From an uncultured Moraxella sp. (GTDB lineage: Bacteria; Pseudomonadota; Gammaproteobacteria; Pseudomonadales; Moraxellaceae), in NCBI RefSeq assembly GCF_945873075.1, contig NZ_CAMCBS010000019.1:1-39630 (forward strand): 39,630 nt of DNA. Direction: 5' to 3'. Both the position numbers and the translations under genes were made by a program. This document shows positions 35,784-38,489 of this stretch, piece after piece; the first letter of the stretch is position 1, and each line of letters starts with the position of its first letter. Below the pieces are notes generated by a model. That model ran no database searches. It was not told the origin of the DNA and saw only the letters and a list, made by a program, of their open reading frames with translations.

Positions 35784-38489
35784 TTATGCCTGTGTATCGG
35801 TTGTATCCGTATGATCAGGACTGTCAGTACTTGTGCCTACTTCGACATCCACCGCATCATCATCGCTTGGCTCTTCGTGCTCGACGCACGCCATGCCAAC
35901 CAGCACTTCTTCGTCAGCAATACGAATCAGCTTGACGCCTTGAGCATTACGCCCTGCGATGGCGATTTGGGCGACTGGTGTACGCACCAATGTGCCTTTA
36001 TCCGAGATCAAAATCACATCTTCTTCGCCAGTTACGGCAATGGCTTTGACCAGCTGACCATTACGCTCAGATGTCTTGATGGCGATGATGCCTTTACCGC
36101 CACGACCTTTGGTTGGGTAGTCGTCAATCGGTGTGCGCTTACCAAAGCCATTCTCGCAGGCACACAAAATCTCGCCTGTCGTCGGTGCAACAACGAGCGA
36201 CACCACACGGCTGACCGCAAAGCCATCGCTGTCGTCACCATCATCTTCTACAGGTTCTTCGTCATCAGCGAGTGCCAAGAGATTGACACGCATACCACGC
36301 ACGCCTTTAGCGACACGGCTCATCGCACGGATGCTGTCTTCTTTAAAGCGAATCGCCTTACCTTCATTGCTAAATAGCATAATTTCTTGATTGCCATCGG
36401 TAATCGCCACGCCAATGAGCGTATCGCCTTCGACCAAGTCAATCGCTCTTAGACCATTGGCACGCAGATTGGCAAACTGTGACAAGGCAACACGCTTGAC
36501 CGTACCTGATGCGGTGGCAAAGAATACAAAGCTGTTTTCGTCCTTAAGATCAGTCACAGGCAAGATGGCAGTGACTGATTCATCGGCTTCTAGATTGATA
36601 AGATTCACCAGTGGGCGACCTTTTGAGCCACGACTTGCCAAAGGAATCTCAAAGCCACGCAGGCCAAACACACGACCCGTATTGGTAAAGCACATGATAT
36701 GCGCATGGGTGCTGGTGACCAGCAAATGCTCAATCACATCATCTTCTTTCATGGCAGTAGCCGAGCGGCCTTTACCGCCACGCTTTTGTGCTTGATAATC
36801 GCTGATCGGCTGTGTCTTGGCATAGCCTGTGTGTGAGACGGTAAGGACAACGGTTTGTTCTGGGATCAGATCTTCACGGTTGAAATCATGGCGTGCATCG
36901 ACGATATCCGTGCGACGCTCATCGCCAAATTCATCACGAATCTCAATCAGCTCGCTACGCACCACGCCCATCAGCACATCAAAGTCATTCAAAATCAGCT
37001 CAAGACGAGCAATCTCGCCTAGGATTTCTTGGTATTCGCCAGTCAGCTTGTCTTGCTCAAGACCAGTCAAGCGGTGCAGCTGCATATCCAAGATGGCATT
37101 GACCTGCTCAGGTGACAGGCGATAACGAGTGTTATTATCAATCAAGCCATAAGGCGCATTCAAATCTTCGCCTTCAATATATTCAGGACGAATAGAGCTT
37201 GCGCCTGCTGCTTCAAGCATCGCCACCACGCCACCTGACTGCCAAGTGCGTGATAGTAGCTTGTCACGAGCTTCTGCTCGGTTTGATGACTGCTTGATGG
37301 TCTCAATCACTTCATCAATATTGGCAAGTGCGATGGTCAAGCCTTCGAGCAGATGCCCACGAGCCAAAGCTTTGTTTAATTCAAAAATAGTGCGACGAGT
37401 CACGACTTCTTGGCGATGGCGAATGAATGCCGCCACCAAATCACGCAAGGTCATCAGCTTTGGCTGACCATTATCAAGCGCCACCATATTGATACTAAAG
37501 CTAGACTCAAGCGGTGTTTGGGTAAATAGATTATTTACCATGACTTCAGAATTTTCGCCACGGCGCAAATCAATCACCACACGCACGCCTTCTTTGTCCG
37601 ATTCATCACGAATCTCGGTGATGCCTTCGATTTTTTTGGCATTGACCAAATCGGCAATGTGTTTGATTAGATTGGCTTTATTGACTTGATAAGGAATCTC
37701 AGTAAAGACAATACGCTCACGGTCTTTATTCGCACCGCTCTCGCCCATCGGCTCAATGTGATAACGACCACGGATATGCAAGCGACCCTTGCCCGTACGA
37801 TAAGCATCAATGATACCGCTACGGCCGTAGATGATACCCCCTGTCGGGAAATCTGGGCCCGAGATATGCGTAATCAGCTCTTCGGTGGAGATATTTGGGT
37901 TATCGGCATAGGCTAGGCAGGCGTTTAGCACTTCGGTGAGATTGTGCGGTGCCATGTTGGTCGCCATACCGACGGCGATACCTGCTGCGCCATTGACGAG
38001 TAGATTTGGGATGCGCGCAGGTAGCACGCTTGGCATCTTCATCGAGCCGTCGTAGTTGTCTTCCCAATCGACAGTATCTTTGTCCAAATCAGCAAGCATA
38101 CGATGCGTCAGCTTCTGCATCTTCATCTCGGTATAACGCATCGCCGCCGGTGGGTCGCCATCCATCGAGCCAAAGTTACCCTGACCATTGACCAGCATAT
38201 AACGCAGGCTAAAATCCTGCGCCATACGCACGATGGCATCATACACTGCTATGTCGCCGTGCGGATGGTATTTACCGATAACATCACCGACCACACGGGC
38301 TGATTTTAGGTATTTTTTGTTATAATCGTTGCCCAATTCGTGCATGGCGTACAAGATACGGCGGTGCACAGGCTTAAGACCATCACGCACATCAGGCAAT
38401 GCACGAGAGACGATGACGCTCATGGCGTAGTCTAAATATGATCGCTTTAACTCATCGACAATGCCAATGGGGCTGACCGAATCACTCAT
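35784..38489 (-). CDS. gyrA: DNA gyrase subunit A
   Basis: A 901-residue type II topoisomerase subunit. The N-terminal breakage-reunion domain has the active-site Tyr in PAAMRYTEMKMQ and the quinolone pocket region HPHGDIAVYDAIVRMAQDFSLRYMLVNGQGNFGSMDGD. The C-terminal beta-pinwheel carries the GyrA box QKRGGKGRSA and a second related QKRGGKG-like KGRGGKG. A tail of about 40 residues is very acidic. At residue 80, which aligns with E. coli Ser83, the residue is Ile (codon ATA at 38250-38252), while Asp84 (E. coli 87) is kept. A TGCTATAAT promoter element precedes the gene, and AAGGA precedes the ATG. Length is close to other gammaproteobacterial GyrA proteins. Confidence 0.98.
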   Translation of the reverse strand: MSDSVSPIGIVDELKRSYLDYAMSVIVSRALPDVRDGLKPVHRRILYAMHELGNDYNKKYLKSARVVGDVIGKYHPHGDIAVYDAIVRMAQDFSLRYMLVNGQGNFGSMDGDPPAAMRYTEMKMQKLTHRMLADLDKDTVDWEDNYDGSMKMPSVLPARIPNLLVNGAAGIAVGMATNMAPHNLTEVLNACLAYADNPNISTEELITHISGPDFPTGGIIYGRSGIIDAYRTGKGRLHIRGRYHIEPMGESGANKDRERIVFTEIPYQVNKANLIKHIADLVNAKKIEGITEIRDESDKEGVRVVIDLRRGENSEVMVNNLFTQTPLESSFSINMVALDNGQPKLMTLRDLVAAFIRHRQEVVTRRTIFELNKALARGHLLEGLTIALANIDEVIETIKQSSNRAEARDKLLSRTWQSGGVVAMLEAAGASSIRPEYIEGEDLNAPYGLIDNNTRYRLSPEQVNAILDMQLHRLTGLEQDKLTGEYQEILGEIARLELILNDFDVLMGVVRSELIEIRDEFGDERRTDIVDARHDFNREDLIPEQTVVLTVSHTGYAKTQPISDYQAQKRGGKGRSATAMKEDDVIEHLLVTSTHAHIMCFTNTGRVFGLRGFEIPLASRGSKGRPLVNLINLEADESVTAILPVTDLKDENSFVFFATASGTVKRVALSQFANLRANGLRAIDLVEGDTLIGVAITDGNQEIMLFSNEGKAIRFKEDSIRAMSRVAKGVRGMRVNLLALADDEEPVEDDGDDSDGFAVSRVVSLVVAPTTGEILCACENGFGKRTPIDDYPTKGRGGKGIIAIKTSERNGQLVKAIAVTGEEDVILISDKGTLVRTPVAQIAIAGRNAQGVKLIRIADEEVLVGMACVEHEEPSDDDAVDVEVGTSTDSPDHTDTTDTQA

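What the first reader, a model, noticed from the sequence alone, without database searches (positions are those of the whole stretch)
38250..38252. GyrA carries Ile at the quinolone-resistance position (residue 80, E. coli 83)
The motif reads HPHGDIAVYDAIVRM, where susceptible bacteria have Ser or Thr at the I position. By counting from the ATG this is residue 80. To my knowledge Thr80Ile in GyrA is the known low-level fluoroquinolone-resistance change in Moraxella catarrhalis, and a codon ACA to ATA is a single transition. Asp84 (E. coli 87) is unchanged. The window may therefore come from a fluoroquinolone-selected isolate, unless Ile is the normal residue in this species.
Basis: partly seen in the sequence, partly recalled or inferred. 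Interest (0 to 1): 0.75.

Follow-up and report, generated by a model that had tools for sequence, protein, structure and literature searches.

The report
Quinolone-resistance-type gyrase change in Moraxella
A Moraxella bacterium of an unnamed species carries a change in its DNA gyrase of a kind known to weaken fluoroquinolone drugs, and the changed piece may have been swapped with a neighbouring species; the change itself is of a well-known kind.

Summary
In detail: gyrA (38489-35784, minus strand) has ATA (Ile) at codon 80 (E. coli 83), Asp84 unchanged. The genome is a Moraxella of the M. catarrhalis / M. cuniculi clade, but neither species. In the genus, 17 of 21 readable GyrAs have Thr and 4 have Ile (window, G006, G013, G014). 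Thr80Ile is a reported low-level resistance change in M. catarrhalis (PMC9815622, review passage). ATA is the only ATA among 68 Ile codons of this gyrA, which suggests a recent origin. ParC is wild type (Ser80, Glu84), so low-level resistance is expected. The nearest relative, G013, has the same ATA plus ParC Ser80Phe, Sul2 and APH(6), so it looks drug-selected. Around codon 80 the two species differ at 1 of 180 bases, against 11% over gyrA. This suggests recent recombination of a resistance-region segment. But near-identical tracts cover 2.7% of the aligned sequence, so the coincidence is suggestive, not proof. Other strains of the window's species could not be examined, so Ile as its normal residue is not excluded. 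A known kind of resistance change in a new host; modest interest.

The parts
35784..38489 (-). gyrA, DNA gyrase subunit A, 901 aa, intact
   Evidence: Translation; NCBIfam TIGR01063 and NF004043 over cut-off; alignment to a solved GyrA
38250..38252 (-). codon 80 (E. coli 83): ATA, Ile in place of the Thr/Ser usual here
   Evidence: genus and family comparison
38238..38240 (-). codon 84 (E. coli 87): GAT, Asp, unchanged; [quoted passage not shown]
   Evidence: role of Ser83/Asp87 from PMC9917921 passages
38181..38300 (-). quinolone-resistance-determining region (E. coli GyrA 67-106 = residues 64-103 here)
   Evidence: Range from PMC7730664 passage, mapped by the 3-residue offset seen
38196..38375 (-). 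tract (gyrA nt 115-294) in which window and G013 differ at 1 of 180 bases although their gyrA genes differ by 11%; codon 80 lies inside it
   Evidence: base rate of such tracts

Best explanation
GyrA Ile80 here is a derived Thr-to-Ile quinolone-resistance-type substitution. Quinolones are held in the gyrase-DNA cleavage complex by a water-metal ion bridge anchored on the residues equal to E. coli Ser83 and Asp87. A hydroxyl-free Ile at the first anchor should weaken that bridge, so that gyrase is less sensitive to the drug while keeping its function. With ParC wild type, reduced susceptibility or low-level resistance is expected rather than high-level resistance. Shown: the residue, its rarity, the intact gene, wild-type ParC Ser80/Glu84, and a GyrB EGDSAGG-PLKGK stretch identical to that of Thr80 relatives. 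Inferred: the drug phenotype, past drug selection, and that the allele moved by homologous recombination between this species and the G013 species or from a common donor.
For: Thr is the residue in 17 of 21 GyrAs of the genus, including the two next-nearest species. ATA is the only ATA of 68 Ile codons in this gyrA and 31 of 794 in 27 window ORFs picked by hand, so a recent ACA-to-ATA step is likelier than long residence. Thr80Ile is reported as low-level resistance in M. catarrhalis (review passage). Both ParC Phe80 genomes (G013, G014) are among the 4 GyrA-Ile genomes and none among the 17 GyrA-Thr ones (chance 6 in 210, worked by hand). G013, which shares the ATA, is the only one of 22 genomes over the Sul2 and APH(6) cut-offs. 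The bridge is described for E. coli and N. gonorrhoeae enzymes (passages). Tract: 1 of 58 variable sites differs in nt 115-294 against 301 of 1010 elsewhere; longest one-difference run reached in 0 of 20,000 permutations, longest run without difference p 0.004.
Against: No strain of the window's own species could be compared and no MIC is available. The nearest relative also has Ile, so Ile could be normal in this small lineage. The window's held draft (93.59% complete) shows no Sul2 or APH(6) over cut-off and has wild-type ParC. Ile at this position also occurs in 5 of 92 GyrAs from other family genera with codons ATT/ATC, so it need not mean recent drug selection. Near-identical tracts between the two species are not unique to gyrA: 2,786 of 102,693 aligned positions (2.7%), on 4 of 48 segments, so recombination at codon 80 could be coincidence.
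Confidence: 0.7

Rival explanations
1. Ile80 is the normal residue of this species (or of the window plus G013 lineage), fixed without drug selection; the gyrase may be intrinsically a little less quinolone-sensitive.
For: The nearest relative G013 also has Ile with the same ATA codon. Ile occurs in 5 of 92 GyrAs from other family genera. No Sul2 or APH(6) over cut-off and no ParC change in the window genome.
Against: ATA is rare here (1 of 68 in gyrA); over an 11% divergence a fixed Ile would be expected to drift towards ATT/ATC (inference). G013 looks drug-selected (ParC Phe80, Sul2, APH(6)). The low-divergence tract around codon 80 argues against simple long-term inheritance.
Confidence: 0.26
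2. A resistance mutation in place in the window's lineage, independent of G013; the near-identical tract is a coincidence. (This overlaps the best explanation, which holds either way; only the recombination step would fall.)
For: Independent origins occur: G014 has ATT while its nearest relatives have ACT. Near-identical tracts cover 2.7% of aligned sequence anyway.
Against: Needs the same rare codon twice in neighbouring lineages and a coincidence of about 1 in 37 for the tract position.
Confidence: 0.25
3. Sequencing or assembly error at this base.
For: The genome is a 60-contig draft, completeness 93.59.
Against: A neighbouring species shows the same codon in a single-contig genome, the reading frame is intact, and the contamination figure is 0.02.
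Confidence: 0.02

Closest known systems
GyrA Thr80Ile of Moraxella catarrhalis (Yamada and Saito 2014, as cited in PMC9815622)
   Same: Same gene, same residue number, same amino-acid change; low-level effect reported
GyrA Ser83Leu of E. coli and Ser91Phe of N. gonorrhoeae
   Same: Same structural position; loss of the hydroxyl that anchors the water-metal ion bridge (PMC9917921 and PMC11015056, passages only)
   Different: Starting residue is Thr (inferred) and the product is Ile
Mosaic gyrA from predicted interspecies exchange in Neisseria (PMC8973304: abstract and section 14 read)
   Same: Recombinant stretches within the gyrA resistance region exchanged between related species (for example nt 197-396 in one event)
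   Different: Here only one genome per species was available, so donor, recipient and frequency cannot be told; one event inferred from local divergence only

Membership tests
DNA gyrase subunit A (GyrA) | Full-length match over the curated GyrA cut-off, and better than to ParC | tested here: met
   TIGR01063 1153.7 bits, cut-off 877; parC_Gneg 541.4 bits, below its cut-off 628.9
GyrA quinolone-resistance substitution (position 83, E. coli) | Residue aligned to E. coli Ser83 is neither Ser nor Thr | tested here: met
   Ile80 aligned to Ser; genus 17 Thr, 4 Ile of 21; other genera 54 Ser, 31 Thr, 5 Ile, 1 Phe, 1 Asn of 92
GyrA quinolone-resistance substitution (position 83, E. coli) | Derived within the species: susceptible strains of the same species have Ser/Thr | not testable with these tools
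   One genome per species is held; the nearest relative (another species) also has Ile
GyrA quinolone-resistance substitution (position 83, E. coli) | Raised quinolone MIC or drug-insensitive gyrase | not testable with these tools
   No phenotype; needs MIC and enzyme assays
High-level resistant double mutant (GyrA plus ParC) | ParC change at Ser80 or Glu84 | tested here: not met
   Window genome ParC Ser80 (AGT) and Glu84 (GAA); G013 and G014 have Phe80
Mosaic (recombinant) gyrA | Stretch with significantly lower divergence to another species than the rest of the gene | tested here: met
   nt 115-294: 1 of 58 variable sites differs, elsewhere 301 of 1010; 0 of 20,000 permutations reach the one-difference run. 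Six control pairs: one-difference-run p 0.078 to 0.58, zero-difference-run p 0.048 to 0.46. The permutation ignores uneven rates
Mosaic (recombinant) gyrA | Donor identified and tree conflict shown | tested here: inconclusive
   By difference counts window and G013 are nearest to each other inside and outside the tract, so no conflict is seen; no tree was built; direction unknown

The most novel reading that the evidence does not exclude
A quinolone-resistance segment of gyrA of roughly 200 bases has recently moved between two distinct, unnamed Moraxella species of the M. catarrhalis clade. In that clade topoisomerase IV is already altered: ParE has Gln instead of Asp in its EGDSAGG motif (the position of the quinolone change GyrB D426N and of the zoliflodacin change GyrB D429N). 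Topoisomerase IV may therefore be a weak drug target, so that a single transferred gyrA segment would be enough for resistance.
Probability: 0.3. Interest if true: 0.5.

Novelty: new member of a known kind. Interest (0 to 1): 0.33.

Why it matters
The substitution is a textbook resistance change, here in a Moraxella that is not M. catarrhalis. If the recombination reading holds, related Moraxella species would share a pool of gyrA resistance alleles, as has been proposed for commensal Neisseria (PMC8973304). The clade-wide ParE Gln423 offers a testable reason why gyrase might be the main setter of fluoroquinolone susceptibility in the M. catarrhalis clade.

Tried and rejected
Paper searches (10 of 10 used). 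One search (catarrhalis + gyrA + T80I) found 0 papers; of the 288 papers, the 20 listed hold 'Thr80Ile' 0 times. The change was found as 'Thr80 to Ile' in PMC9815622 (passages). The primary papers were not read: PMC5610493 is not held and Yamada and Saito 2014 was seen only as a citation. I claim nothing about what is or is not in print on mosaic gyrA in Moraxella. Papers seen as passages only: PMC12373483, PMC9917921, PMC9815622, PMC3477668, PMC9865888, PMC7730664, PMC11015056. PMC8973304: abstract and section 14.

G006 (ATA) as a third sharer of the tract: rejected; it differs from the window at 20 of 120 bases in codons 61-100. GyrB as an additional resistance site: not supported; in 7 genomes EGDSAGG to PLKGK is identical, and the window differs from the other six by one Glu-to-Asp further on (SSADVG), judged by eye to be outside the 426-447 range. 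ParE: the window's residues from EGQ to PLRGK equal those of G013 and G003. A plasmid link for window 1-25000: 12 records matched, 5 listed, all 5 at 10060-11357 or less (lysS where annotated), about 80% identical; window 25001-39630 was not searched.

Rows dropped: of the 97 other-genus genomes, G055, G056 and G069 had no match at the threshold and G074 and G081 matched only after residue 80, leaving 92 read; in the genus, G007 (no match at all), leaving 21 of 22. One search failed on a script error and was repeated. The base rate counts parC twice (L002 and L003 overlap; neither has a near-identical tract), so the true rate is very slightly higher; gyrA itself is in that rate.

Full report
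OBSERVATION. The coding strand of window 38250-38252 is ATA, residue 80 of a 901-residue GyrA that starts at 38489 and ends at 35784. The motif is HPHGDIAVYDAIVRM with Asp at 84. In the best solved match (6rks_A, 'DNA gyrase subunit A'; E. coli by recall) the aligned residue is Ser, with an offset of 3 there. The gene is intact and scores as GyrA, not ParC.

HOW UNUSUAL. In the genus, 22 genomes were searched, 21 gave a GyrA, and residue 80 is Thr in 17 and Ile in 4: the window (ATA), G013 (ATA), G006 (ATA) and G014 (ATT). G007 gave no match in the searches that included it and is taken as unreadable. In other genera of the family, 97 genomes were searched, 94 matched, and 92 could be read at this position: Ser 54, Thr 31, Ile 5, Phe 1, Asn 1.

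CODON. Of 68 Ile codons in this gyrA only this one is ATA; over 27 window ORFs, picked by hand from the 46, ATA is 31 of 794. A rare Ile codon one transition from the Thr codon ACA points to a recent change. The nearest Thr relatives have ACC and ACT, so the ACA state is inferred, not seen.

REST OF THE TARGET SET. ParC in the window genome is Ser80 and Glu84. Among 21 ParCs of the genus, residue 80 is Ser in 14, Thr in 5 and Phe in 2; Glu84 is kept in 21 of 21. The two Phe genomes, G013 and G014, both have GyrA Ile. GyrB in 7 genomes has identical residues from EGDSAGG to PLKGK. In the other family genera, the five GyrA-Ile genomes have ParC Ile (3), Leu (1) and Thr (1), and the one GyrA-Phe genome has ParC Ser. 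I did not read ParC in the GyrA Ser/Thr genomes of those genera, so this has no control.

KNOWN EFFECT. A review (PMC9815622; passages) states that Thr80 to Ile in GyrA gives M. catarrhalis low-level fluoroquinolone resistance, citing Yamada and Saito 2014, which I did not see. PMC9917921 (passages) describes the water-metal ion bridge anchored on Ser83 and Asp87 in E. coli gyrase. PMC11015056 (passages) reports such a bridge for both N. gonorrhoeae enzymes. From these, Ile80 with wild-type ParC should give reduced susceptibility or low-level resistance. That is inference; no MIC exists here.

A POSSIBLE SWAPPED SEGMENT. Window and G013 gyrA differ at 306 of 2676 bases but at only 2 of 150 in codons 51-100. 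In nt 115-294 there is a single difference, and a cluster of differences ends sharply at nt 114. The stretch is not generally conserved: 58 of its positions vary among six genomes. Window and G013 differ at 1 of these 58 against 301 of 1010 elsewhere (Fisher 9e-8). The longest one-difference run was reached in 0 of 20,000 permutations of variable sites; the longest run without difference had p 0.004. Six other species pairs gave 0.078 to 0.58 for the one-difference run and 0.048 to 0.46 for the run without difference. The permutation ignores uneven rates along the gene, and the tract was noticed before it was tested.

BASE RATE, AGAINST OVER-READING. I compared 20 stretches of 20 kb of the window genome, plus the window and four loci, with 460 kb of G013 plus four loci. 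Of 102,693 aligned positions, 2,786 (2.7%) lie in 180-column windows with at most 2 differences, in 9 tracts on 4 of 48 segments. Besides gyrA these lie in L205 (one at the end of an rpoB-like gene and four in genes further downstream), L203 (a sugar-biosynthesis-like cluster) and L110 (the 3' end of gyrB and beyond); the gene names for L205 and L203 are recalled from the look of the translations and rest on no family search. I had no third genome for L205 and L203, so strong conservation is not excluded there. Exchange between the two lineages may thus be general, and finding codon 80 inside such a tract has a chance of about 1 in 37. It is suggestive support for a transferred allele, not proof. 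By difference counts both genomes are each other's nearest inside and outside the tract, so direction is unknown.

DRUG-SELECTION CONTEXT. G013 is the only one of 22 genomes over the cut-offs for Sul2 (614.5 bits) and APH(6) (385.6 bits), and it has ParC Phe80. It looks like a strain from a drug-exposed setting (inference). The window genome, as held, has neither over cut-off; G006 and G014, the other two Ile genomes, have neither as well.

SIDE FINDING ON TOPOISOMERASE IV. In ParE, the Asp of EGDSAGG is Gln (residue 423) in 4 of 4 genomes of the M. catarrhalis clade (G000, G003, G013, G021). It is Asp in 17 of 17 other genus members and 20 of 20 other family genomes read. It is one of 3 clade-only changes at about 256 columns invariant in those 37. 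The same motif position is D426 of GyrB, where D426N is given as a common quinolone change (PMC7730664 passage), and D429 of N. gonorrhoeae GyrB, where D429N raises zoliflodacin MIC (PMC9865888 passages). Because Thr80 species share it, it is not the cause of this finding. It might make topoisomerase IV a poor target in this clade; untested. Against that: the review lists a ParE change (Q395R) among those of levofloxacin-selected M. catarrhalis, and G013 carries ParC Phe80, so topoisomerase IV changes may still matter here.

VERDICT. Observation confirmed. Most likely a known kind of resistance substitution in an unnamed Moraxella, of low-level effect, perhaps carried by a recombined gyrA segment. 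The main open question is whether Ile80 is normal in this species.

Noticed in passing
L259-L262 (ParE of G000, G021, G013, G003), own residue 423: ParE EGDSAGG motif reads EGQSAGG in 4 of 4 M. catarrhalis-clade genomes, Asp in 37 of 37 other family genomes read: a clade-wide change at a position tied to quinolone and zoliflodacin response in GyrB.
   Followed up: partly
window 38732-39482, minus strand: Beside gyrA, a TacA1-family antitoxin (39210-39482, Pfam PF08681) overlaps a GNAT acetyltransferase (38732-39226): it looks like a TacA/TacT-type toxin-antitoxin pair.
   Followed up: no
L205 about 8045-8347 and 14254-16089; L203 about 9328-10012; L110 about 1275-1635 (gyrB 3' end): Other near-identical tracts between the window genome and G013 in otherwise more divergent surroundings, suggesting recurrent exchange between the two species.
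   Followed up: partly
G013:C1:1712613-1717175 (L238, L240): The nearest relative carries Sul2 and APH(6) genes about 3 kb apart, alone among 22 genomes of the genus at the cut-offs.
   Followed up: no
L241, L242, L244, L246 (G053, G105, G104, G075): Four genomes of two other family genera have hydrophobic residues at both the GyrA 83 and ParC 80 positions, with codons ATT, ATC or TTA: resistant isolates or naturally insensitive species.
   Followed up: no
G005:C6:943-1742: The weak match to the Sul2 family, likely the chromosomal folP, is split into two pieces with separate open frames near a contig start.
   Followed up: no
G007: A genome listed as 100% complete gave no match to gyrA/parC, gyrB/parE or Sul2-family queries; probably unreadable in this copy rather than a real absence.
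   Followed up: no
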